Shown here piece by piece: positions 46,643 through 64,000 of a DNA stretch of 64,000 nucleotides. The stretch covers positions 1 to 64,000 of the forward strand of contig JACQSX010000028.1 of the NCBI GenBank assembly GCA_016211105.1, read 5' to 3'. Below the pieces are notes generated by a model. That model searched no databases and was not told the origin of the DNA. It was given only the letters and a program-made list of their open reading frames with translations. Source of the stretch: Acidobacteriota bacterium. Lineage in GTDB: Bacteria; Acidobacteriota; UBA6911; JACQSX01. Position numbers and translations under genes: made by a program. The stretch's first letter is position 1. Each line of letters starts with the position of its first letter.

Positions 46643-46981
46643 ATGAAACAACCGAAGACTGTAATTTTTTTGATTCTTTCACTATTCGTTATCGCAGGGT
46701 GGGTCGCAACACGGCGGAGCACGATTTCCGCCGACGACAAGGCCGCGCAGCCGGCGCAGCTTGAGAAAATAACTTTTAAGGTTCAGGGGATGACCTGTGG
46801 AGGTTGCGCCCTGGCAGTAAAGAAGACTCTGGAAAAACAGCAGGGAGTCCGCAAAGCGGAAGTCTCACTGGAAAAAGGAGAAGCGATTGCCGAAGTAAAA
46901 AGAGGCAATGTCAGGCCTGAGGACCTGGCTGATGCGGTCACCAAGGTCGGGTACAAAACGACGGTGGTAAGGCTCAATTAG
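46643..46981 (+). CDS. MerP-like HMA protein with membrane anchor, copy 1
   Basis: 112 residues. An N-terminal hydrophobic segment (TVIFLILSLFVIAGWVA) exports or anchors it. One HMA domain carries the metal site GMTCGGC (about residues 50-56) and the typical KAEVSLEKGEAIAEV strand. It is a paralogue of 60895-61230. It should bind a soft metal such as Hg(II) at the outer face of the membrane and pass it to a MerT-type carrier. Confidence 0.88.
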   Translation: MKQPKTVIFLILSLFVIAGWVATRRSTISADDKAAQPAQLEKITFKVQGMTCGGCALAVKKTLEKQQGVRKAEVSLEKGEAIAEVKRGNVRPEDLADAVTKVGYKTTVVRLN

Positions 46982-46997
46982 TGGAGGATTCGACAAA

Positions 46998-47526
46998 ATG
47001 TCTCAGTGCTGTCCTACTGCAGCATCCTCGTGTTCAAACACTCAAGCGATGGAACGCCGCCTGGGAATTTGTCCCGAGTGCGGCAACAAGGGAACGAAAG
47101 TCCAACCGATTACGGTGCAAAGCCTGGTCCGGCCGGACCGCCACGTGGGAATCCAGGAAACCCAGTATCACTACTGCGCTACCCCTGAATGCGATGTCGT
47201 GTACTACTCGAATAGAGCCGATCTCGTTTTTCAGAAAAGAGATCTCACCGTCCGCATAGGAGCTAAGGAAAACGTTGATCCCATCCCTGTGTGCTATTGT
47301 TTTGGACACACGGAGCGATCCATCCAGGACGAAATTGAAAGCACAGGCAGTTCCTCTGCCGAGGAAAAGATACGCGCCGAAATAAAGGGGGGGCAACTGC
47401 GCCTGTGAAAGGACCAATCCTGCGGGAACCTGTTGTCTGGGAGACGTGCGAGCCGTGACCCGACGTTTGCTTCACAGGAAAGCGGCCGCAGAAGATCGTT
47501 GCACTATTACGTGTGCGAAGATGTAA
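46998..47526 (+). pseudogene. CopZ-type zinc/iron-sulfur protein, copy 1, frameshifted
   Basis: The frame from 46998 gives 136 residues with CCPTAASSC, ICPECGNKG and IPVCYCFGHTERSI, as in the N-terminal Zn/[2Fe-2S] domain of CopZ-like copper chaperones. It stops early at 47406. Compared with the intact copy at 61276, a run of seven G (about 47387-47393) has shifted the frame: with six G it would continue as NCACERTNPAGTCCLGDVRA to a stop at 47526. Either a real frameshift or a sequencing error in the G tract. Confidence 0.75.
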
Positions 47527-51842: not shown

Positions 51843-52913
51843 ATGCAGAACTTGGAACACAGAAGGGGTGTTCTTCAGAGGCCCTATCTCATTATTCTGG
51901 GCGCCGCTGTGGGACTCACCATGGTCCTTGAGGGTTGGGCTCTCATGCAGGAGGACAGGCTGGTAATCAATCAGGCATTGCTAGCAGCTCTCCCGCTGCT
52001 TCCGCTTCTGGTGGGCCTGACCCTTTGGGCTGTCTCGCCGCTCACTCCAGGCGGCAAGCGTAGAAAATGGTGGAACTGGCTTCTGCATTGGATAGGGGGA
52101 ACCGCTGCTGTACTTGTTGCCGTCGTCGTGGTCCACCTGGCATGGGTTTTCATGTTTCCTTACCACACTGCTGTGGCTTCCAATCGGCAGACGCTCTCAG
52201 TCGCCGACGCCTATAATTATCGCCACTTTGGCTACTCCTTCTATGTCCGCGGAAAACAGCGCCGCGTCGCGGAGGGTCAACACGTACTGGACGAGACATT
52301 GACCAACCTTCAAGGTAACAGAATTCAGCTTTCCAGCCTTTGGCAGGAAAGGCCAATCGTGGTGGAGTTTGGCAGCATTACCTGTCCCGTGTTTTGCGGC
52401 AAGATTGCGTCGATGGAGGAACTGGCCCGCAAGTACGCAGGAAAAGCAAATTTCTACGTGTTGTACGTCAGGGAAGCCCATCCGGGACAGAATTACCCAG
52501 CGCACCGAAGCTTCACACAAAAGTTAAACTACGCTCACGCTCTGGAACGTCTGGAAAAGGTCGAGCGCACGATCTTGATCTATGATCTGGAAGGAACAAT
52601 GAACCGGGATTACGGCGCGATGCCCAATTCTGTGTACGTCATTGGAAAGGATGGAATAATCGCCTACCGCGCGGACTGGAACGATCTTGCCCAAGTCGAA
52701 AGAACACTTGAGGCTGTCTTGGGAAGTGGCGGCAATGCGGCCGGCATTTGGCCGACCGGGATGCAGGACAACTTCGTGAAAGTAGATACTGGAGTTTTGG
52801 GTGGGTCTTTCAGGGTCCTGAGACGTTCGGGGTTTGCCGCCGTTGCAGACTTTGTCATGTCCTTTCCGAGTATGTCGATGGGGCGTGTGCAGGGAGGACG
52901 GTCCAGGAATTGA
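51843..52913 (+). CDS. Iodothyronine deiodinase-like membrane redoxin (Cys form)
   Basis: 356 residues. Three N-terminal membrane segments (about 15-35, 45-65, 85-105) precede a thioredoxin-fold domain. The active-site stretch VEFGSITCPVF (Cys181) lines up with the NFGSxTUPPF site of deiodinases, where U is Sec. YVREAHPGQNYPAHR and GTMNRDYGAMPNSVYVI are further deiodinase-family features. Cys185 adds a C-x3-C pair. It stands 45 bp upstream of a Sec-containing HMA gene. Substrate unknown. Confidence 0.8.
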   Translation: MQNLEHRRGVLQRPYLIILGAAVGLTMVLEGWALMQEDRLVINQALLAALPLLPLLVGLTLWAVSPLTPGGKRRKWWNWLLHWIGGTAAVLVAVVVVHLAWVFMFPYHTAVASNRQTLSVADAYNYRHFGYSFYVRGKQRRVAEGQHVLDETLTNLQGNRIQLSSLWQERPIVVEFGSITCPVFCGKIASMEELARKYAGKANFYVLYVREAHPGQNYPAHRSFTQKLNYAHALERLEKVERTILIYDLEGTMNRDYGAMPNSVYVIGKDGIIAYRADWNDLAQVERTLEAVLGSGGNAAGIWPTGMQDNFVKVDTGVLGGSFRVLRRSGFAAVADFVMSFPSMSMGRVQGGRSRN

Positions 52914-52958: not shown

Positions 52959-53291
52959 ATGAAACGAAGGGATGTACTGTATTTTATGGGTCTTTCAGTA
53001 ACAGGGCTTCTAACTCTTCGAGGGTTTGCCCAGGAAGAATCGGGTAAAGAGAAGAAAGAAGAGGTTGTAACGTTGGCTATCACCGGCATGACTTGAGATT
53101 CCTGTGTCCAAACGGTGCAGTCTGCACTGGAATCGGTTAAGGGGGTCAAAGAAGCCAAGGTATCGCTGGAGGATAATGAGGCGGTGGTGAAATTTGACCC
53201 GAGCATGGCAAAGGTCGAGGATCTCATTAAAGCCGTCAAAGATGCCAAGGGGATGAACCGCTACGACGCTGAGGTCAAAAAGAAAAAATAA
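52959..53291 (+). CDS. MerP-like HMA selenoprotein (GMT-Sec-x2-Cys)
   Basis: 110 residues if TGA 53094-53096 is read as Sec46. The frame runs from the ATG at 52959, which has a GAGGAGGG ribosome binding site, to TAA at 53291. A Tat-like signal (MKRRDVLYFMGLSVTGLL) leads an HMA domain reading LAITGMT-Sec-DSCVQTVQSALE, with the normal HMA end VKEAKVSLEDNEAVVKFDPS. The UGA replaces exactly the first Cys of GMTCxxC while the rest of the domain is intact, so a nonsense pseudogene is unlikely. It should bind soft metal ions outside the cytoplasm. Confidence 0.87.
53115..53127 (+). promoter_or_regulatory. Candidate bacterial SECIS hairpin, HMA selenoprotein 1
   Basis: GTGCA-GTC-TGCAC forms a tight hairpin whose loop begins 24 nt after the UGA. 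An outer pairing GATTCC (53097-53102) with GGAATC (53129-53134) extends it. The TGCAGTCTGCAC core closely resembles the E. coli fdhF SECIS (TGCAGGTCTGCAC), including the GU in the loop. Confidence 0.8.
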
Positions 53292-53853: not shown

Positions 53854-54030
53854 ATGTCGAAAATCCTAGTGGTAGATGATGAGCCGGCAGTTACTCATTT
53901 GCTGAGGTGGTTCTTAGAGAAAAAGGGCCATGAAGTGGTCACGGCTGCCGACGGAGTTGAGGCGCTGGCCAGCGTGCAACAGGAAAATCCTAAAGTTGTG
54001 CTTCTTGATATCTCCATGCCCCTAGCCACG
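53854..54030 (+). pseudogene. Response regulator receiver domain, C-terminally truncated
   Basis: About 59 residues: SKILVVDDEPAVTHLLRWFL and VVLLDISMP with the phospho-acceptor Asp. Similarity ends abruptly after SMP, where helix 3 should follow. The frame then runs without a stop into the MerC-like gene, an in-frame join that probably arose by recombination. Confidence 0.78.
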
Positions 54031-54051
54031 GCGGTAACAGGGGGAAACACC

Positions 54052-54435
54052 TTGAGCCATAGTCATGCGGATAAATGGGGACCGTTGGGCAGCATTTTTG
54101 CCGCTCTCTGCTGCTTGGGAGCGGCGCCTGCCTTAGCCGCGGTCTCCGCGTTGGGCTTGGGTTTTTTAATTAACGACATTATTCTGATTCCGCTCCTGGT
54201 GGTCTTTCTTGGCGCGACGATCTGGGCTCTCCGGAGAGATCGCAGCCGCCACGGGCGCACGGGACCGCAACGGCTTGCTTGGCTGGCGTCGCTTTTTACC
54301 GTGAGCGGTCTCTGGGTTTCCGGCGTGGTCGTGAGTTTGGGACTCATTCTGCTGGTGGCGGCCTCGATTTGGAATGTCGTTGTTACCTGGCAAACAAAAT
54401 TCCCCCTTGACTCCGTACCTAAGTCCAGGGTTTAG
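54052..54435 (+). CDS. MerC-like mercury transport protein, copy 1
   Basis: 127 residues from a TTG at 54052 with AGGGGGA upstream. The start LSHSHADKWGPLGSIFAALC matches the ATG-started paralogue at 61980. A Cys pair in ALCCLGAAPALAA lies in the first of about four membrane segments (FLINDIILIPLLVVFLGATI). MerC-type proteins carry Hg(II) inward. The frame is open upstream into the response-regulator fragment, so a fusion product cannot be excluded. The last codons overlap the promoter of the next gene. Confidence 0.75.
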   Translation: MSHSHADKWGPLGSIFAALCCLGAAPALAAVSALGLGFLINDIILIPLLVVFLGATIWALRRDRSRHGRTGPQRLAWLASLFTVSGLWVSGVVVSLGLILLVAASIWNVVVTWQTKFPLDSVPKSRV

Positions 54436-54459: not shown

Positions 54460-54891
54460 GTGAACGGGCTGACTATTGGACATGTAGCCAAGCAAGCGGA
54501 GGTCCACGTTGAGACGGTCCGCTATTACGAGCGACGCGGAATCCTGCCGGAGCCAGCGAGGAGCCCATCTGGCTACCGTCAGTACGACACAGAAACGGTG
54601 CGGCTTATTCGGTTCATCAAGCGCGCGCAGGACCTCGGCTTCACACTTGGCGAGATCAAGCAGTTAATTGAGCTTCGGAGAAACTCCAGGCGGAACAGAT
54701 CCGCCGTAAGCGCACTTGCGACGGCAAAGCTCAGTGACATCGACAAGAAGATTCTCCAGTTGCAGGCGATGCGAAAAGCACTCGAACTTCTTGTTGATGC
54801 TTGCGCTTGCAAAGATCATAAGCTGGACTGTCCGATCATCGAAGCGCTCAACGACGACGAAAAGGGAATGATCATCAAAAAGGAGAAATAA
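54460..54891 (+). CDS. MerR-family metal-responsive regulator
   Basis: 143 residues from a GTG at 54460 preceded by AAAGGAG. The winged HTH reads LTIGHVAKQAEVHVETVRYY and RSPSGYRQYDTETV. C-terminal cysteines lie in DACACKDHKLDCPIIEAL. The helix-5 Cys of mercury-sensing MerR (position 82 type) is replaced by Ser/Val in NRSAVSALATAK, so the ligand may not be Hg(II) in the classical three-Cys mode. It should regulate its own operon. Confidence 0.85.
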   Translation: MNGLTIGHVAKQAEVHVETVRYYERRGILPEPARSPSGYRQYDTETVRLIRFIKRAQDLGFTLGEIKQLIELRRNSRRNRSAVSALATAKLSDIDKKILQLQAMRKALELLVDACACKDHKLDCPIIEALNDDEKGMIIKKEK

Positions 54892-54893
54892 CA

Positions 54894-55160
54894 ATGAAAA
54901 AACGAAGTGTTGAATTATTTACAGCAGCATGTCCCTGTTGTGACGAGACGATAAAGCTCGTCCAGGGCATGGTTTGTCCTAGCTGTGACGTTCAGATCCA
55001 TGACATGCGTTCTGACAAGGCTGCTCAGGAGAAGGCAAAACAATACGGCATCGGCAGCGTTCCGGCGGTCGTGGTCGACGGACGACTGGCTGACTGCTGC
55101 TTGGGCCGGGGTGTCAGGGAAGCATCCCTGCGCGCCGCCGGCGTCGGCGTCCCCCTGTAG
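54894..55160 (+). CDS. Thioredoxin-like cysteine-rich protein
   Basis: 88 residues. It begins KKRSVELFTAACPCCDETIK with CPCC, then MVCPSCDVQIHDMR and the cis-Pro region GIGSVPAVVVDGRLADCC. This is a glutaredoxin/thioredoxin-size fold with four extra cysteines. Such genes occur in mer-like operons and may pass metal or electrons. It starts 2 bp after the merR-like gene. Confidence 0.78.
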   Translation: MKKRSVELFTAACPCCDETIKLVQGMVCPSCDVQIHDMRSDKAAQEKAKQYGIGSVPAVVVDGRLADCCLGRGVREASLRAAGVGVPL

Positions 55161-55240: not shown

Positions 55241-55732
55241 ATGAGGAGTGATGTGAAAATGAATACCAGGACATTTCGACAGGACCTCGGCGCTACCTTA
55301 AGCGGCGGCTTGCGGCGGGCCACGGTGAGTGAAATTCTCTCGGTCTACGGCGCCCTTCTTAGCTCGTTCGCCACCCTGGTTTGTTGCGCGCTGCCGGCAC
55401 TGTTGGTTTTGCTCGGATTTGGAGTGACAAGCGTTCTGACTTTTTTAACGGCGATCCCAGGGTGGCAAGACTTCTCCAGCTACGAAATTTGGCTGTTTCC
55501 GCTGAGCGGAATCTTGTTGGCTGCGGGCTTTTATTTCGCTTACTTTCGCCAAAACCCAGCCCAAGGTGAGGTTTGCGAAATTGCAGGGGGAGGCCAGGAA
55601 AGCGCCTGCTCTACCACCACACGCTGGAATCGCCGGCTTCTTTGGTTCTCAGTTTTCCTCTATAGCCTAGCCTTGGTAACAAACTTTTGGGGAATCGGTT
55701 GGATGAAAGCTCACGGGTACTTTGATCGCTAA
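55241..55732 (+). CDS. MerT-like membrane protein, long form
   Basis: 163 residues. The first membrane segment has the Cys pair in FATLVCCALPALLVLLGFGV, as in MerT helix 1. A second helix ([19 protein letters not shown]), a cytosolic loop with Cys (GEVCEIAGGGQESACS) and a third helix follow. MerT carries Hg(II) from MerP to MerA across the inner membrane. An in-frame ATG at 55259 is an alternative start. Confidence 0.8.
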   Translation: MRSDVKMNTRTFRQDLGATLSGGLRRATVSEILSVYGALLSSFATLVCCALPALLVLLGFGVTSVLTFLTAIPGWQDFSSYEIWLFPLSGILLAAGFYFAYFRQNPAQGEVCEIAGGGQESACSTTTRWNRRLLWFSVFLYSLALVTNFWGIGWMKAHGYFDR

Positions 55733-55750: not shown

Positions 55751-56665
55751 TTGAAAACAAAAAGATGGGTTATGTCTTTTCTGCTTTTGGGTTGCGTCGG
55801 ACTTGCAGACCCAGGGCTGCGGGCCCAGGCGATCATGGCGCCGAGTGGTAGAACGCTATTTAGCGGCGCGACTTTGGTGCGCTCGTTTGCTCAAGTCAAC
55901 CACTTTGCCCTTCGCTCCGATGGAGATTCAAAGGAGATCACCCAGTACATTACGCCCCTTGCTGTTGTTTATGGGTTTCATCCTAAATGGACGGTCGTCG
56001 TGGCTCAGCCGTATGTAACCGTAGACATTACCAGCCACAGGGGGGATGAAACGCGACGAGAAAACATAAACGGTCTCGGCGATTCGCAGATGTTTATTCA
56101 ATATGATGGGATTTATAGCCGCAACACCCCGGGAGGGCTGACCCGGCTCTCCGGTATTCTTGGTCTCCAGGCGCCCACGGGCGCACGACGGTTCTCCACC
56201 GGCGCTTTCGAATACACCGGGGGGCTAATTTTCGAAAAGCAGGCGAACTTGAAATATGTTTTCACTGCTGATTTTGAATACACCTTCGCTACTGAGAATG
56301 ATCGCGGATTAACAGTGGGCGACCGAGCCAGGTTTGATGCCGTGCCAGGGTACTTTGTTATTTCTCGGGAGAAACCTCTTCCGGATGCGAGCTGGCTCCG
56401 GAAGGTCTATGATCGGGCGTTTCGCGACGGGGCATATTTCATTTTGGAATTCAATGGCGCCTGGCAGGCCCATGCTCGTAGCCAGGGGACTGGGGTTGCC
56501 AACTCCGGCGGAACCACACTTTCGATTTCACCCGGCATCCAGTATTTTCCAGGCCGCAGCTTCTTGATCGAGTTTTCTTACGCGATTCCGGTGGCCAGGG
56601 AGCTAAATGGGACACAGCCCGAGCTGGAATCAACTTTTCTCTTTGGTTTCCGCTATCTGTTTTAG
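55751..56665 (+). CDS. Outer-membrane transporter-like beta-barrel protein
   Basis: 304 residues from a TTG with GAGGAGACC upstream. A signal peptide (WVMSFLLLGCVGLADPGLRA) is followed by a beta-barrel pattern resembling the MetA-pathway/outer-membrane family (GLGDSQMFIQYDG, LSGILGLQAPTGARRFSTGA), and the protein ends in FGFRYLF. It may form the outer-membrane pore or sensor of this metal locus. It is upstream of HMA selenoprotein 2 by 54 bp. Confidence 0.7.
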   Translation: MKTKRWVMSFLLLGCVGLADPGLRAQAIMAPSGRTLFSGATLVRSFAQVNHFALRSDGDSKEITQYITPLAVVYGFHPKWTVVVAQPYVTVDITSHRGDETRRENINGLGDSQMFIQYDGIYSRNTPGGLTRLSGILGLQAPTGARRFSTGAFEYTGGLIFEKQANLKYVFTADFEYTFATENDRGLTVGDRARFDAVPGYFVISREKPLPDASWLRKVYDRAFRDGAYFILEFNGAWQAHARSQGTGVANSGGTTLSISPGIQYFPGRSFLIEFSYAIPVARELNGTQPELESTFLFGFRYLF

Positions 56666-56719
56666 GTTCTGAATGAAACTCAGGGATGAGACAAGCAAGT
56701 CTTTTAGGAGGGTTTAATC

Positions 56720-57232
56720 ATGCGAAAGATAATCAGCCTGTGGCTTCTATTCGTGTCTATAAGCTTTCTTTCCACAGTGCCGGCCGCGGCCCAGGTGGTG
56801 AAGGCTATGGTCAAAATCAACGGCATGATATGAGGCCTCTGAGCTAAAGGGGCTCAGAAGGCCCTCGAACGCCTGGATGGCGTTGATCACGCAGAAGTGA
56901 ATTTGGTAAAGGGAGAGGCGCAGGTCGTTCCCAAACAGCGACAATCCTTCGATCCCATCCTAATTCCCAAAGCGGTCAGTGAAGCGGGCTTCACAGCACC
57001 TGAGGTCGTTGTGACCGTTGACGGGACTCTGATCAAGGGTGAGGAATTTCCCGAGCTGAATGTACCTGGGCTCGAACACTCATTTATGCTTGCTGGCGGA
57101 AAACAGGCCGCGGTGCTCGGAAAGCGCACCGACCTTACCGGGAAGAGAGTCCGTATAAGTGGCAAACTCCATCCCAGCCACGGCGACGCCCTACCAGGTC
57201 TAACAGTTGAAAACTTCCAGGTGGCGCCATGA
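56720..57232 (+). CDS. MerP-like HMA selenoprotein (GMI-Sec-x2-Sec)
   Basis: 170 residues if two TGAs are read as Sec (56831-56833, Sec38; 56840-56842, Sec41). The frame opens at the ATG 56720 with AGGAGGG before it. A signal peptide (LWLLFVSISFLSTVPAAAQ) leads an HMA domain: VKINGMI-Sec-GL-Sec-AKGAQ, then LDGVDHAEVNLVKGEAQVVP. Both UGAs fall exactly on the CxxC positions and the frame is otherwise open, so decay is improbable. The C-terminal ~75 residues (LTGKRVRISGKLH) look OB-fold-like. A diselenol site would bind Hg(II) very tightly; that is inference. Confidence 0.87.
56834..56863 (+). promoter_or_regulatory. Candidate SECIS hairpin A, HMA selenoprotein 2
   Basis: GGCCTCTGAGC pairs with GCTCAG-A-AGGCC: 11 bp with one bulged A, loop TAAAGGG. 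It begins right after the first UGA and contains the second UGA in its 5' arm. The stem is far stronger than expected by chance. The loop is larger than in textbook bacterial SECIS. Confidence 0.65.
56868..56884 (+). promoter_or_regulatory. Candidate SECIS hairpin B, HMA selenoprotein 2
   Basis: AACGCC-TGGAT-GGCGTT, a 6-bp stem with a 5-base loop whose second and third bases are G. The loop starts 32 nt after the second UGA, within the usual bacterial window. Confidence 0.6.
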
Positions 57233-60044: not shown

Positions 60045-60067
60045 AGCAGATGAAGACAGAAAGGGCT

Positions 60068-60538
60068 ATGAGACAAGGGGTATATCGCATCGGAGACGTT
60101 GCCAAGGAACTGGGTCTGACGCCCCAGGCGCTTCGCTACTACGAACAGGAGGGGCTTATTCCTAAACCTCAGCGAACGCCATCGGGCTATCGAATCTTTT
60201 CCGAAGACGCTCGCGCGCGATTGTTGTTTTTGAAACGTGCCCAGCAGTTCGGCTTCAAACTCGACGAGATCAAGACTTTATTGGGAGTGAAGGCCAACCG
60301 CCGTGGCTCCTGTGCACAGGTCAAATCGCTGCTGGATGCCAAGCTGGTTGAGCTGGAGGAGCGATTCAAGCAGATAAAACAATTGCAAACCGATTTGCTG
60401 CGATTGCGAAAGGAGTGTGAAGCAGCCTTTTCCGTCGATGCCTCCTGTCCGGTGATCATAGATTTTGCCAAAGACGTTTCCGGCAGTGTCAGCGCGCAAA
60501 ACATTCCCAAGAGACGGCGAGAGATTTCGTCTCTATGA
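60068..60538 (+). CDS. merR: MerR-type mercury-responsive regulator
   Basis: 156 residues from the ATG at 60068; the ATG at 60050 would lie at the predicted transcription start. HTH: YRIGDVAKELGLTPQALRYY. All three mercury-ligand positions are occupied: Cys in RGSCAQVKSLLD, and Cys in RKECEAAF and DASCPVI. It heads a tight operon with merT (4-nt overlap), merP and a CopZ-type gene, so it most likely senses Hg(II). Confidence 0.87.
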   Translation: MRQGVYRIGDVAKELGLTPQALRYYEQEGLIPKPQRTPSGYRIFSEDARARLLFLKRAQQFGFKLDEIKTLLGVKANRRGSCAQVKSLLDAKLVELEERFKQIKQLQTDLLRLRKECEAAFSVDASCPVIIDFAKDVSGSVSAQNIPKRRREISSL

Positions 60539-60870
60539 GCGATAAGCCTATTTTGTTTGGAGCATTAATCGCATCCTTTACCGCCTCGCTCTGTTGCGTT
60601 TTGCCGGTCGCCGTAGCGGTGCTGGGAATCGGTAGTGTCAGCGCCGCGGCGATCTTTGAGGGCTTCCGCCTGCCACTGTCGCTGCTGACCTTTGCATTGC
60701 TGGGAGTTGGGTTTTATTTTAACTATCGTCCGGCGAAGGAAAAGTGCGAGCCAGGAAGTGCCTGCGCCGTTCCCGCCCACCGAAGGCGCACCCGGATAAT
60801 TCTGTGGCTGATCACATTGGCGGCACTGGCGTTTCTTGCATTTCCCGACTACTCAAGGTTCTTGGTCTAA
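60535..60870 (+). CDS. merT: MerT-like mercury transport protein
   Basis: 111 residues, three membrane segments. The Cys pair in ASFTASLCCVLPVAVAVLG sits in helix 1 as in MerT. A second Cys pair lies in the loop (KEKCEPGSACAVP). It carries Hg(II) from MerP towards cytosolic MerA. The ATG overlaps the merR stop. Confidence 0.88.
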   Translation: MSDKPILFGALIASFTASLCCVLPVAVAVLGIGSVSAAAIFEGFRLPLSLLTFALLGVGFYFNYRPAKEKCEPGSACAVPAHRRRTRIILWLITLAALAFLAFPDYSRFLV

Positions 60871-60894
60871 GACTTCGTTTTGAGGAGAGCGTTT

Positions 60895-61230
60895 ATGAAA
60901 GGACTCAGTATTAGCATTTTCCTGTTACTGGTGTTGGGGCTGGCGGCCTGGGTGACTCTGCGACCCACCCCGGCGTCCAGCGACGACAAAGCCGCGGGTT
61001 CTCCGCAGTTGGAAAAAGTGGTTTTTAAGGTGGAAGGGATGACTTGTGGTGGCTGCGCTATGGGAGTGAAAAGGACCCTGGAGAAGCAGACGGGAGTGCA
61101 GAAGGCGGAAGTTTCCCTTGAAAAGGGCGAGGCGATTGCCGAAGTGGAAAAAGGTAGGGTCAATCCCACAGCCTTGGCCGCTGCGGTAACTCGGTTCGGA
61201 TACAAGACCACAGTGCTGAAAGTCAACTAG
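60895..61230 (+). CDS. merP: MerP-like HMA protein with membrane anchor, copy 2
   Basis: 111 residues from the ATG at 60895, with GAGGAGAG upstream; an in-frame start at 60880 is also open. Anchor: SISIFLLLVLGLAAWVTL. HMA metal site: GMTCGGCAMGVKRTLEKQ. It is the intact counterpart of 46643-46981. Both end VGYKTT/FGYKTT-VL. Its stop codon lies in a 20-bp palindrome. Confidence 0.88.
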   Translation: MKGLSISIFLLLVLGLAAWVTLRPTPASSDDKAAGSPQLEKVVFKVEGMTCGGCAMGVKRTLEKQTGVQKAEVSLEKGEAIAEVEKGRVNPTALAAAVTRFGYKTTVLKVN

Positions 61231-61246
61231 TGTCCCGGGACACTAG
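61227..61246. repeat. 20-bp perfect palindrome at the merP stop
   Basis: CTAGTGTCCCGGGACACTAG, fully self-complementary and containing the merP stop codon. It could form a hairpin in the mRNA between merP and the next gene, lowering downstream expression or protecting the upstream part. No U tract follows. Confidence 0.6.
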
Positions 61247-61275
61247 CGGTCGTCTTGTAAAGAGGAGAAGAAGAA

Positions 61276-61830
61276 ATGTCAGATTGCTGTTCTACCGCTT
61301 CGCCGGCTGCGAGCCGCTCAGCGAGGATTTGTCCCGCCTGCCAAAACAAGGGAAAACCAGTGCAGCTCATTACCGTGCGGAGCCTGGTGCGGCCGGAACG
61401 TAGGCCAGAAATTCAAGAAATCCAGCACTACTATTGTCCCACGCCCACTTGTGACATTGTGTACTTCTCGGCCGCCACAACTTCTCGCTTTCATAAGGAC
61501 AATCTCACCGTCCGCGTGGGCGCCAAGGAAACTGTCGACCCCATCCCAGTCTGCTACTGCTTTGGACATACGGAGGGATCGATCCATCAGGAAATCGAGG
61601 CCACGGGAAAGTCGTCTGCTGAGGAAAGCATACGGGCCGCCATTAAGGCGGGAGAGTGTACCTGCGAGACAAGCAATCCAGCAGGCGCCTGCTGCTTGGG
61701 CGACGTTCGAGCTGCGATCGACCTTTGGCTTCGTAAGATAAATGCTCGCTACCAGAGCGAGGAAGTGATGACAGCAGTGGACAACAGAACCAGCGCCGCA
61801 TGTTGTGAACCAACACAATGCAGCCGGTGA
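61276..61830 (+). CDS. CopZ-type zinc/iron-sulfur cysteine protein, copy 2
   Basis: 184 residues. Cys-rich throughout: SDCCST, RICPACQNKG, YYCPTPTCDIVYFS, IPVCYCFGHTEGSI, then CTCETSNPAGACCLGD and AACCEPTQC. The middle matches the N-terminal zinc/[2Fe-2S] domain of CopZ-like chaperones, but there is no HMA domain; the HMA is a separate gene upstream. It probably shuttles metal or electrons in the mer-type pathway. Confidence 0.78.
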   Translation: MSDCCSTASPAASRSARICPACQNKGKPVQLITVRSLVRPERRPEIQEIQHYYCPTPTCDIVYFSAATTSRFHKDNLTVRVGAKETVDPIPVCYCFGHTEGSIHQEIEATGKSSAEESIRAAIKAGECTCETSNPAGACCLGDVRAAIDLWLRKINARYQSEEVMTAVDNRTSAACCEPTQCSR

Positions 61831-61979
61831 CAGTTCTTGCTCGGTGGTCCTCGGTTGGCTTCAATCGAGTGGGCAGGGTAGCCGCACAAAGGTCGACGAA
61901 GCGACAATTAGGGACAAAGCTGAAATACGTTCGTCCCCGGCTTGCCTGCTAAGCTGCAAAAAGGAAGGGGAGAAATGAT

Positions 61980-62351
61980 ATGAGCGAAGTTCACGCAGAT
62001 AAGTGGGGACCCCTGGGCAGTATCTTCGCCGGCCTCTGTTGCCTGGGAGCGGCGCCTCTTCTGGCGGGCCTGTCAGCCTTGGGATTGGAGTTTTTGATTC
62101 ATGATACAATTCTGATTCCTCTGTTAATCTTCTTTCTCGGCGTGACGATTTGGGCACTGCATCGAAATCGAAGCCGCTGCGGCACTGCTGGGCCCCTGTG
62201 GCTGGTGTGGCTCGCGGCTGTTCTTACGCTGGGGAGCCTCTGGATCTCTGGTGTGGCAGTAGGCCTGGGACTGCTTCTTTTGGTATCGGCTTCGATCTGG
62301 AACGCAATAGCAACCAAGCGTTGTGAACCAACGAGAGGAATGATCAGCTAA
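61980..62351 (+). CDS. merC: MerC-like mercury transport protein, copy 2
   Basis: 123 residues. It begins SEVHADKWGPLGSIFAGLCC with a membrane Cys pair; four hydrophobic segments follow (FLIHDTILIPLLIFFLGVTI). It is the paralogue of 54052-54435. It has a good AAGGGGAG ribosome binding site. It provides an alternative Hg(II) uptake route towards MerA. Confidence 0.82.
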   Translation: MSEVHADKWGPLGSIFAGLCCLGAAPLLAGLSALGLEFLIHDTILIPLLIFFLGVTIWALHRNRSRCGTAGPLWLVWLAAVLTLGSLWISGVAVGLGLLLLVSASIWNAIATKRCEPTRGMIS

Positions 62352-62401
62352 GCGGGTTAGCAGGCTCATGCCGACAATGATTTAGGATTTAGGAAGAACC
62401 G

Positions 62402-62617
62402 ATGAGCCCTGAAGAAGTCAGTACCACACAGGCGCCGAGGTATGGCCCGAGCACCATTCACGCGGGTCTAGTGCTGTTTGCTATCGTGGGAGCCCTGGTT
62501 GTGTACAAGTGGGAAACAGCTGTTGGGATCCTTCAAAATGTTAGCGCCACAGGCGTGATGCCGACGCGGGCTGATGTTATTCCACTTGGTCGTGCTTCCG
62601 ACAGTCTCGATCGATGA
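62402..62617 (+). CDS. Small membrane protein, possible N-terminal part of a split permease
   Basis: 71 residues with one membrane segment (IHAGLVLFAIVGALVVYKW). The stop overlaps the start of the next gene (ATGA). The order and the short distance suggest it is the detached N-terminal part of a DUF318/ArsP-type permease, or a coupled small subunit. Confidence 0.5.
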   Translation: MSPEEVSTTQAPRYGPSTIHAGLVLFAIVGALVVYKWETAVGILQNVSATGVMPTRADVIPLGRASDSLDR

Positions 62618-62985
62618 ATTATTTCGCTGTCATCTGGCCCGCATTGCTCTTTGGTATCCTCATTGGTGGGAGTGTTCACGCATTTGTTTCTCCGCACTGG
62701 TTGACACGGGCACTGAGTGGCAGTCCGGGCCGAGCCCAGCTTGCCGCTGGGCTCGCTGGAACGCCGCTGATGCTTTGTTCCTGCTGTGTCGCTCCAATTT
62801 TCACAAGTGTATACGAGAGAACGTGGCGTTACGGTCCATCGTTGGCAGTGATGCTGGCCGCTCCTTCGCTAAATCCTGCGGCGCTCACCCTTACATTCAT
62901 GCTTTTTGGACTCCGCATTGGGACTATGCGTGTGGCAATGGGGATCGCAGCCGTCTTCTTGATGGGAACGGTGTTAGATCGATAG
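62614..62985 (+). CDS. DUF318/ArsP-type permease, N-terminal half only
   Basis: 123 residues. The family signature PLMLCSCCVAPIF (Cys-rich helix) and AAPSLNPAALTLTFMLFG are clear. Full-length relatives have a second half with about four more helices; here a TAG ends it after VFLMGTVLDR. It is probably a truncated gene. Such permeases export organoarsenicals or other soft-metal species. Confidence 0.6.
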   Translation: MNYFAVIWPALLFGILIGGSVHAFVSPHWLTRALSGSPGRAQLAAGLAGTPLMLCSCCVAPIFTSVYERTWRYGPSLAVMLAAPSLNPAALTLTFMLFGLRIGTMRVAMGIAAVFLMGTVLDR

Positions 62986-63128
62986 GAGAATTCCAGAAAT
63001 CCGCTTTACTCCCCCATTCCGTTTGTGAATGGTAGTTTGTGGACAGTATCCGGAATGACAACTCGCACCGGGCCAGGAAGTGTCACCTTCAAGATGGAGG
63101 TGAAATAACTCAACCGAGGGGAAGGCCA

Positions 63129-63260
63129 ATGATTCTTGCGCAGATGGAACCAATGGGCGGAATGAGGGGCATGATGTGGGGCATGTCTATCTACTGGGTC
63201 TTAGGCTTAGTCGTATTAGTTCTGCTGATCGTTTTGCTCGTGAAGATGATTCGGAAATAA
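63129..63260 (+). CDS. Very small membrane protein
   Basis: 43 residues from the ATG at 63129 with GGGGAAGG before it. A Met/Gly-rich start (EPMGGMRGMMWGM) precedes one span (YWVLGLVVLVLLIVLLVKMI). Met-rich leaders can bind Cu or Hg weakly. It lies between the permease and merA. Confidence 0.5.
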   Translation: MILAQMEPMGGMRGMMWGMSIYWVLGLVVLVLLIVLLVKMIRK

Positions 63261-63459
63261 AGCGGCGATCTGTGGTTAGGTCGACTCTTTGGTGGAGCGG
63301 TTGCGCTATCACAATATGGCTGCCGGCGGTCTGTGGGTCGGCTCCGGCGGACCTCACGGCGGATAACAGCCGTGTGAGTTGTGGTCCAAAGCAGCGAAAA
63401 AATCGCCTGGGCAGAATCCTGAGTCCTCCAATGGTATTTAAAAGGAAGGAGATAGCCAC

Positions 63460-64000
63460 ATGAGGAATCGCAAACATAGTACTCTGCGAATCGAAGGTAT
63501 GACCTGCGACGGCTGCGGGCGCCACGTCATAGCCGCGCTTAAAGCTGTGCAGGGAGTCGAAGAAGCGCAGGTTGGAAACTGGCGCTCCGGACGAGCTACG
63601 GTTATTTCCGACGAGAGCGCCGAGAGCAGAGCGCTCGTGGGAGCGGTGGAGAAGGCAGGCTATCGGGCCGTGCTCGAGGAACATCGTCCCCTGGAGGGGC
63701 AGAGTCGCGTGCCTTCTAGTAAGGAAGAATTTGATCTGATGATTGTCGGTGGAGGGTCTGCGGCCTTTGCAGCCGCCATCAAAGGCGCAGAACTGGGCGC
63801 CAAGATCGCTATCGTTGAAAAGGGAACCATTGGCGGTACCTGCGTCAACATCGGTTGTGTTCCATCCAAGACACTCATCCAGGCGGCCGAAATCTGCTAT
63901 CACTCGTCCTATTCCGATTTTGAAGGGCTCACGGCCTGCCCGCCTCCGTCAGATTGGCAGCGGGTGGTGCGGCAAAAGGATGAACTCGTTGCTGCTCTAC
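63460..64000 (+). CDS. merA: Mercuric reductase with N-terminal HMA domain (partial)
   Basis: 180 codons, open to the window end, from the ATG at 63460 with AAGGAAGGAG upstream. An N-terminal HMA domain has GMTCDGCGRH (Cys16, Cys19). The flavoprotein part starts DLMIVGGGSAAFAAAIKGAE with the redox-active GTCVNIGCVPSK (Cys128, Cys133), which identifies MerA rather than a generic HMA protein. It reduces Hg(II) to Hg(0) with NADPH. The HMA here keeps normal cysteines, unlike the two Sec variants in the same region. Confidence 0.92.
   Translation, partial: MRNRKHSTLRIEGMTCDGCGRHVIAALKAVQGVEEAQVGNWRSGRATVISDESAESRALVGAVEKAGYRAVLEEHRPLEGQSRVPSSKEEFDLMIVGGGSAAFAAAIKGAELGAKIAIVEKGTIGGTCVNIGCVPSKTLIQAAEICYHSSYSDFEGLTACPPPSDWQRVVRQKDELVAAL

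What the first reader, a model, noticed from the sequence alone, without database searches (positions are those of the whole stretch)
56720..57232. HMA domain with a Sec-x-x-Sec metal site hidden by two in-frame UGAs
A signal-peptide HMA gene has UGA at both positions of the CxxC metal site and is otherwise a clean 170-codon frame with a good ribosome binding site. An 11-bp hairpin follows the first UGA and a 6-bp hairpin follows the second. Two independent nonsense mutations landing exactly on both metal ligands and nowhere else is very unlikely. A diselenol HMA would be an exceptionally strong Hg(II) binder. Sec-containing HMA proteins may have been described before; I do not know of one with UxxU and this C-terminal domain.
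Basis: partly seen in the sequence, partly recalled or inferred. Interest (0 to 1): 0.95.

Follow-up and report, generated by a model that had tools for sequence, protein, structure and literature searches.

The report
Double-selenocysteine periplasmic mercury-binding protein
A bacterial gene carries UGA codons exactly where a metal-binding site normally has two cysteines, and relatives swap UGA and cysteine at those same two places, so it likely makes an exported protein whose two selenocysteines are predicted to grip mercury or a similar soft metal.

Summary
Codons 38 and 41 of a signal-peptide HMA gene (56720-57232) are UGA. The genome has selA, selB, tRNA-Sec (anticodon TCA) and a selD with its own UGA. 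In 92 HMA stretches from the loci held, the same two columns read UxxU 13, CxxU 3, UxxC 7, GxxU 1, CxxC 68; the closest named relative, HR10, is CxxU. dN/dS downstream of the UGAs is about 0.16. Instead, two hairpins after the second UGA recur together in 12 of 13 UxxU genes and in 0 of 68 CxxC relatives; the second fits the published bacterial SECIS model for the second UGA. The protein is a secreted HMA domain plus a probable OB-fold domain, beside a beta-barrel gene and MerR-, thioredoxin- and MerT-like genes, 6 kb from a MerA gene. Sec-x-x-Sec HMA proteins are already catalogued (NF041115), so the kind is known; the HMA+OB architecture, the barrel partnership and the two-hairpin element are what I found no account of. 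Mercury as ligand is inferred, and the nearest MerR-type regulator lacks one mercury-binding cysteine.

The parts
56706..56712 (+). ribosome binding site AGGAGGG, 7 nt before the ATG
   Evidence: read from the sequence
56720..57232 (+). selenoprotein gene (170 codons plus TGA stop) with UGA at codons 38 and 41
   Evidence: HMA PF00403 42.6 bits; dN/dS
56720..56794 (+). signal peptide MRKIISLWLLFVSISFLSTVPAAAQ (predicted by eye)
   Evidence: translation; low-confidence disordered N-terminus in the model
56810..56992 (+). HMA domain (residues 31-91)
56831..56833 (+). UGA codon 38, first metal ligand
56840..56842 (+). UGA codon 41, second metal ligand
56849..56865 (+). conserved hairpin 1 (6 bp, changes on both sides at 3 of 6 pairs)
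56868..56884 (+). conserved hairpin 2 (6 bp, loop UGGAU; NGGNN in the family), SECIS-like for the second UGA
   Evidence: model quoted
56993..57229 (+). C-terminal domain (residues 92-170), probable OB fold
55751..56665 (+). predicted beta-barrel protein (PF13557, 35.7 bits, cut-off 22), conserved neighbour
55241..55732 (+). MerT-like membrane protein with a vicinal CC pair (no family match; 34% identity over 101 columns to the window's MerT)
54894..55160 (+). small thioredoxin-like protein (PF13192)
54460..54891 (+). MerR-family regulator (TIGR02051 MerR 135.6 bits, below its cut-off 150.85; CueR 128.3)
60050..64000 (+). mer cluster: MerR-family regulator 60050-60538, MerT 60535-60870, MerP-like CGGC protein 60880-61230, zf-CopZ protein 61276-61830, MerC-family protein 61980-62351, MerA from 63460 to 65121 (beyond the window's end)

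Best explanation
The gene has UGA at both metal-ligand codons of an HMA domain and is under purifying selection downstream of them, so it likely encodes an exported selenoprotein whose Sec-x-x-Sec pair would capture Hg(II) or another soft metal in the periplasm. Shown: the frame, both UGAs, the Sec machinery of the genome, the C/U exchange in relatives, the neighbours, and the two hairpins that go with UxxU genes. Inferred: SelB reads both UGAs, helped by hairpin 2 (SECIS-like) and hairpin 1; the protein is cleaved and exported; the diselenolate pair binds a two-coordinate soft metal; the OB-like domain docks a partner; the neighbouring beta-barrel and MerT-like protein act with it in the outer and inner membrane; the MerA encoded 6 kb further on would finish detoxification. 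Mercury is the ligand I think most likely (about 0.6); copper, silver or gold are the alternatives.
For: Sec machinery: SelA 429.5 bits, SelB 361.9, SelD 360.1 with one in-frame TGA, tRNA-Sec 72.7 bits and ARAGORN anticodon TCA. Both columns exchange U and C: UxxU 13, CxxU 3, UxxC 7, GxxU 1, CxxC 68 of 92 stretches; 9 changes among 46 rows on a tree built without these columns. Of 24 distinct stretches with U at either column, 23 have no other in-frame UGA and one has only its terminal stop. dN/dS downstream of the UGAs 0.23/1.48 and 0.049/0.294. Both hairpins (at least 5 of 6 pairs) in 12 of 13 UxxU, 0 of 68 CxxC; 94.6% of pair cells standard, 0 of 500 shuffles as high. Neighbours: barrel within 1.1 kb in 11 of 14 loci, MerR-, MerT- or MerA-like genes in 6 of 14; MerA 568.4 bits, cut-off 454.45.
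Against: No protein or selenium evidence. Hairpin 2 lies 40 nt from UGA1, outside the 16-37 nt of the published model; hairpin 1 is 21 nt from UGA1 but its loop CAGAA lacks the required G. In one search the number of pairs with changes on both sides (4) was reached by 103 of 500 shuffles, and 4 of 6 pairs of hairpin 2 never vary. The window's own conserved-hairpin stretch folds no better than shuffles (z -0.90). UxxC genes lack this element (0 of 7). The adjacent MerR-type regulator has no cysteine where MerR has its first Hg ligand (role recalled). In 8 of 14 loci no MerR-, MerT- or MerA-like gene was seen (several are short contigs).
Confidence: 0.72

Rival explanations
1. A selenoprotein, but for copper, silver or gold: a CopZ-like periplasmic chaperone under a CueR-like regulator rather than a mercury protein.
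For: The protein's best NCBIfam row is a CopZ family (48 bits, below its cut-off 85). The adjacent regulator scores nearly the same for CueR and MerR (128.3 and 135.6 bits, both below cut-off) and lacks a cysteine at MerR's first Hg position.
Against: MerT-like gene in the same run, MerT, MerC and MerA 3-6 kb away; MerT/MerA-type genes near HR10's, G003's, G035's or G138's copies.
Confidence: 0.25
2. The Sec pair is a redox site (selenol/diselenide), for example reducing a metal or recycling the thioredoxin-like neighbour, rather than a metal-binding site.
For: Most known selenoproteins are oxidoreductases (review PMC9312934, abstract and passages); a thioredoxin-like gene lies in the same run.
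Against: The motif is the metal site of an HMA fold, not of a thioredoxin fold.
Confidence: 0.12
3. A decaying gene: two nonsense mutations in a former CxxC protein.
For: The two TGAs alone, read without relatives; 15 of 17 first database hits are annotated as fragments.
Against: Both UGAs recur at the same columns in 13 genomes, dN/dS about 0.16 downstream, Sec machinery present.
Confidence: 0.01
4. UGA is read as Trp throughout (another genetic code).
For: Database relatives P0003 and P0006 show W at both sites, probably because the source translated with another code (inferred; their DNA was not seen).
Against: TGA ends 6 of 20 ORFs of at least 250 aa in the window and the gene itself; tRNA-Sec present; relatives have Cys, not Trp, at these columns in all 68 CxxC stretches and the mixed forms.
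Confidence: 0.01

Closest known systems
NCBIfam NF041115, UxxU metal-binding (seleno)protein (listed as 'putative mercuric reductase', UxxU, 2 Sec, in PMC13188914)
   Same: HMA-type domain with Sec at both metal ligands
   Different: Model of 74 positions, HMA part only; the window protein scores 43.4 bits against a cut-off of 95 and has a signal peptide and a C-terminal domain
MerP (TIGR02052)
   Same: Exported HMA protein of mer clusters with a CxxC-type site
   Different: 32.3 bits against a cut-off of 92.55; Sec ligands; extra domain. A MerP selenoprotein is listed for ocean metagenomes in PMC2398784 (passage) without motif
MerT/CopZ fusion-like heavy metal transport selenoprotein (NF045683)
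   Same: HMA-type selenoprotein linked to metal transport
   Different: 27 bits against a cut-off of 375; no fused MerT part here
Cys-form HMA + C-terminal-domain proteins of metagenomes (for example P0019, P0020, P0042)
   Same: Similar length and two-domain layout, aligned along the window protein
   Different: Cys at both ligands (motif DGLxCPFCAYG in those printed); CxxC loci examined lack the paired hairpins (0 of 68)

Membership tests
HMA domain (PF00403) | score above Pfam's gathering cut-off | tested here: met
   42.6 bits, cut-off 24.8, with C for U
HMA domain (PF00403) | beta-alpha-beta-beta-alpha-beta fold | tested here: met
   model secondary structure and Foldseek matches to CopZ and MerP structures; predicted, not solved
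NF041115 UxxU metal-binding (seleno)protein | score above the curated cut-off | tested here: not met
   43.4 bits, cut-off 95
NF041115 UxxU metal-binding (seleno)protein | UGA at both ligand codons of an HMA site | tested here: met
MerP (TIGR02052) | score above the curated cut-off | tested here: not met
   32.3 bits, cut-off 92.55
Bacterial selenoprotein | in-frame UGA aligned with Cys of homologues | tested here: met
   both columns, 68 CxxC and mixed forms
Bacterial selenoprotein | selA, selB, selC and selD in the genome | tested here: met
[quoted passage not shown]
   hairpin 2 fits for UGA2 (31 nt) but not UGA1 (40 nt); hairpin 1 fits the distance for UGA1 (21 nt) but lacks the G
Bacterial selenoprotein | selenium in the protein | not testable with these tools
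   needs 75Se labelling or mass spectrometry
OB fold (C-terminal domain) | structural match to OB-fold proteins standing above unrelated rows | tested here: inconclusive

The most novel reading that the evidence does not exclude
A secreted diselenolate metal trap: a distinct HMA+OB family, apparently of Acidobacteriota, in which both metal ligands became selenocysteine, read by one conserved two-hairpin element that drives insertion of two Sec residues three codons apart, working with an outer-membrane barrel and a MerT-like pump as a selenium-based arm of mercury resistance.
Probability: 0.45. Interest if true: 0.78.

Novelty: new variant of a known kind. Interest (0 to 1): 0.62.

Why it matters
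Selenium's very tight bond to mercury (established chemistry, recalled) is usually discussed as a cause of toxicity; an exported protein with two selenols at a metal site would turn it into a defence. All four ligand combinations (UxxU, UxxC, CxxU, CxxC) occur naturally in one group of HMA proteins, with an RNA element that goes with UxxU. That makes two questions directly testable: how a bacterium inserts two Sec three codons apart, and what Sec gains over Cys at a metal site. Gene callers miss these genes: of 17 hits in the first protein search, 15 (the window's own among them) are fragments that start after the UGAs.

Tried and rejected
A scan of GTDB contigs with the window protein found nothing; with P0003 it gave 4 loci, of which HR10 alone is full length and the other three match the HMA part. 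No Rfam family matches near the gene (one tRNA in the whole window). A covariance model of the two hairpins found one strong match in the window's genome, this gene (three others at E 4.8 or worse), and in 199 genomes of the phylum matched 9, all of them sequences it was built from, so it revealed no further genes. The fold search with the full model returned mainly HMA domains, hence the C-terminal domain was predicted alone. Pseudogene and UGA=Trp readings were rejected. L051 (G003; GxxU, long branch, a TAA in frame) is unreliable; it was counted and kept in the tree. The 2007 paper on the Olavius symbiont, which I recall as the first report of the UxxU protein, is not held.

Limits of the counts. 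One search matched 178 of 396 genomes, many to the HMA part only, and its list was cut; I read the 30 loci it returned plus 25 further regions of other genomes, not all 178. The 18 CxxC-only genomes were those already at hand, not a random draw. The hairpin columns were taken from folds of the same UxxU sequences on which they were counted, so lean towards them; the CxxC rows are the independent control. Of the 68 CxxC stretches, 8 form hairpin 1 and 3 form hairpin 2 singly (at least 5 of 6 pairs), none both; among the 26 with part of the C-terminal domain it is 1, 1 and 0.

Full report
What is there. The frame 56720-57232 reads MRKIISLWLLFVSISFLSTVPAAAQ (signal peptide by eye), then an HMA domain whose motif is M-I-U-G-L-U-A, then about 79 further residues, and stops at TGA. 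AGGAGGG stands 7 nt before the ATG. Pfam HMA scores 42.6 bits against a cut-off of 24.8. The two UGAs are the only in-frame stops and sit on the two metal-ligand columns.

Can the cell read it? The window lies in a 3.5-Mb genome of 52 contigs, 93.6% complete. It has SelA (429.5 bits), SelB (361.9 bits), SelD (360.1 bits) and a tRNA-Sec match of 72.7 bits that ARAGORN calls tRNA-SeC with anticodon TCA; a second Rfam match above cut-off, 49 bits, is a tRNA-Ser by ARAGORN. SelD carries an in-frame UGA in the motif CAG-U-AAK, where Sec-form SelD proteins have Sec (recalled). UGA is still a stop: 6 of 20 ORFs of at least 250 aa in the window end in it. The phylum is probably Acidobacteriota: a same-class genome, G032, holds the 19,593-base contig of a protein named as from Acidobacteria bacterium AH-259-G07, an inference from matching contig length and protein.

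Relatives. A protein search gave 17 hits, of which 15 (the window's own among them) are fragments that begin downstream of the UGAs; the two full-length ones, P0003 and P0006, show W at both sites, probably an artefact of a translation code (inferred). Searching genomes with stops read through gave matches in 16 of 60 (the window's own included), with copies holding two in-frame TGAs at the site in G002, G003, G030, G032 and G035 besides the window. With a profile, 178 of 396 genomes of the phylum matched at E<=1e-8, many to other HMA proteins. Among 92 distinct HMA stretches in the loci held, the ligand columns read UxxU 13, CxxU 3, UxxC 7, GxxU 1 and CxxC 68. Of 24 distinct stretches with U at either column, 23 have no other in-frame UGA; the remaining one, G003's copy, has only its terminal stop. 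The closest named relative, Bacterium HR10, is 59% identical and has Cys (TGT) then UGA. On a 46-row tree built without the two columns the five states need 9 changes (shuffled mean 19.2, 0 of 200 as low), so Sec and Cys have been exchanged repeatedly; several branches of that tree are long or weak. Downstream of the second UGA, dN over dS is 0.23/1.48 (window and HR10), 0.049/0.294 (G032 and G030) and 0.461/2.194 (window and G003); for G003 and G002 dS is saturated. The far part of the gene is translated and selected.

Sec machinery elsewhere. Of 19 genomes with a U-type copy, SelA is above cut-off in 17 and SelB in 16; 18 have at least one, and G030 (72% complete) has only sub-cut-off pieces. 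Of 18 genomes in which I held only CxxC copies, SelA is above cut-off in 13 (in G111 as pieces) and SelB in 11; five (G083, G124, G166, G171, G381) have neither above cut-off. HR10 was not tested.

The RNA signal. What recurs is a pair of 6-bp hairpins after the second UGA: 56849-56865 and 56868-56884. On 14 sequences (13 UxxU plus HR10) 94.6% of pair cells are standard pairs (0 of 500 shuffles as high); 12 cells have changes on both sides (0 of 500); but 4 pairs with such a change is a number that 103 of 500 shuffles reach. Sliding partners by one column drops pairing to 46-48%. Hairpin 1 carries changes on both sides at 3 of 6 pairs. Hairpin 2 has 4 of 6 pairs that never vary, even where the encoded residues differ (RLDGV in the window, RQAGV in G138; read). 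Both hairpins reach 5 of 6 pairs in 12 of 13 UxxU genes (the exception, G128, folds a hairpin in a shifted register), 1 of 3 CxxU (HR10), 0 of 7 UxxC, 0 of 1 GxxU and 0 of 68 CxxC. Folding z-scores against synonymous resampling average -2.56 for UxxU, -0.69 for CxxU, -0.58 for UxxC and -0.53 for CxxC (-0.74 for the 26 CxxC with part of the C-terminal domain); the one GxxU scores -3.6. The published bacterial SECIS model asks for a 3-9 nt loop with G in its first two positions, 16-37 nt after UGA (PMC13188914, passages). Hairpin 2 (loop NGGNN) fits for the second UGA at 31 nt. For the first UGA it is 40 nt away, while hairpin 1 is 21 nt away but lacks the loop G in this copy. How one element serves two UGAs three codons apart is therefore open. 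HR10, with only the second UGA, keeps both hairpins.

The neighbourhood. On the same strand, in order: a MerR-family regulator (54460-54891), a small thioredoxin-like protein (54894-55160), a MerT-like protein (55241-55732; 34% identity over 101 columns to the window's MerT; no family match), a PF13557 predicted beta-barrel (55751-56665) and the selenoprotein. The gaps are 2, 80, 18 and 54 nt. A barrel relative lies within 1.1 kb on the same strand in 11 of 14 loci (13 UxxU plus HR10; the window counted, the others by tblastn), upstream in 9 and downstream in G030 and G032; G055, G122 and G154 show none. The barrels of HR10 and G003 pass PF13557's cut-off. G376 has MerR, Trx, barrel, HMA (UxxC) and MerT-like in nearly the window's order. 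Further on, the window holds MerT, a CGGC MerP-like protein (below the MerP cut-off), a zf-CopZ protein, a MerC-family protein and MerA (568.4 bits, cut-off 454.45), which begins at 63460 and runs past the window's end. MerR-, MerT- or MerA-like genes are seen in 6 of the 14 loci: the window, HR10, G003, G002 (MerR alone), G035 and G138; several of the other eight are short contigs.

How it likely works. Inferred: the protein is exported, Sec38 and Sec41 form a diselenolate site for a two-coordinate soft metal, and the load passes to the MerT-like protein's cysteines or stays bound. Mercury is the first guess from the company it keeps. Against this, the regulator of this gene run has no cysteine aligned with the first Hg cysteine of MerR (the role of that cysteine is recalled), so Cu(I), Ag(I) or Au(I) remain possible.

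Known or new? UxxU HMA proteins are known: NCBIfam NF041115, the row 'Metal-binding protein (putative mercuric reductase), UxxU, 2' in PMC13188914 (passages), and the same entry in PMC9312934 (passages); PMC2398784 lists a MerP selenoprotein (passage). The window protein fails those families' cut-offs. In the searches made (listings, and passages of four papers) I found no description of an HMA+OB Sec protein, of the barrel partner, or of the two-hairpin element; the library holds only open-licence papers.

Noticed in passing
window 52959-53291 (+): A second candidate selenoprotein: a short HMA protein with UGA at the first ligand (MT-U-DS-C, UGA at 53094-53096), HMA 62 bits, without the two hairpins.
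   Followed up: partly
window 51843-52913 (+): A deiodinase-family protein (PF00837, 55 bits) without in-frame UGA, directly upstream of the second candidate selenoprotein.
   Followed up: no
window 53854-54435 (+): One open frame joins half of a response-regulator receiver domain to a MerC domain, perhaps a recombination scar.
   Followed up: no
window 46643-47408 and 60880-61830 (+): Two copies of a MerP-like (CGGC) plus zf-CopZ gene pair in one window.
   Followed up: no
L101, L102, L103 (G122, G055, G154): A far UxxU branch (U-AT-U) that keeps both hairpins but shows no barrel or mer-type neighbour.
   Followed up: partly
L075, L100, L107, L109 (G099, G226, G135): UxxC copies fold a different hairpin (CACGC-CGTGC-GCGTG type) about 18-22 nt after their single UGA, nearer the usual SECIS place.
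   Followed up: no
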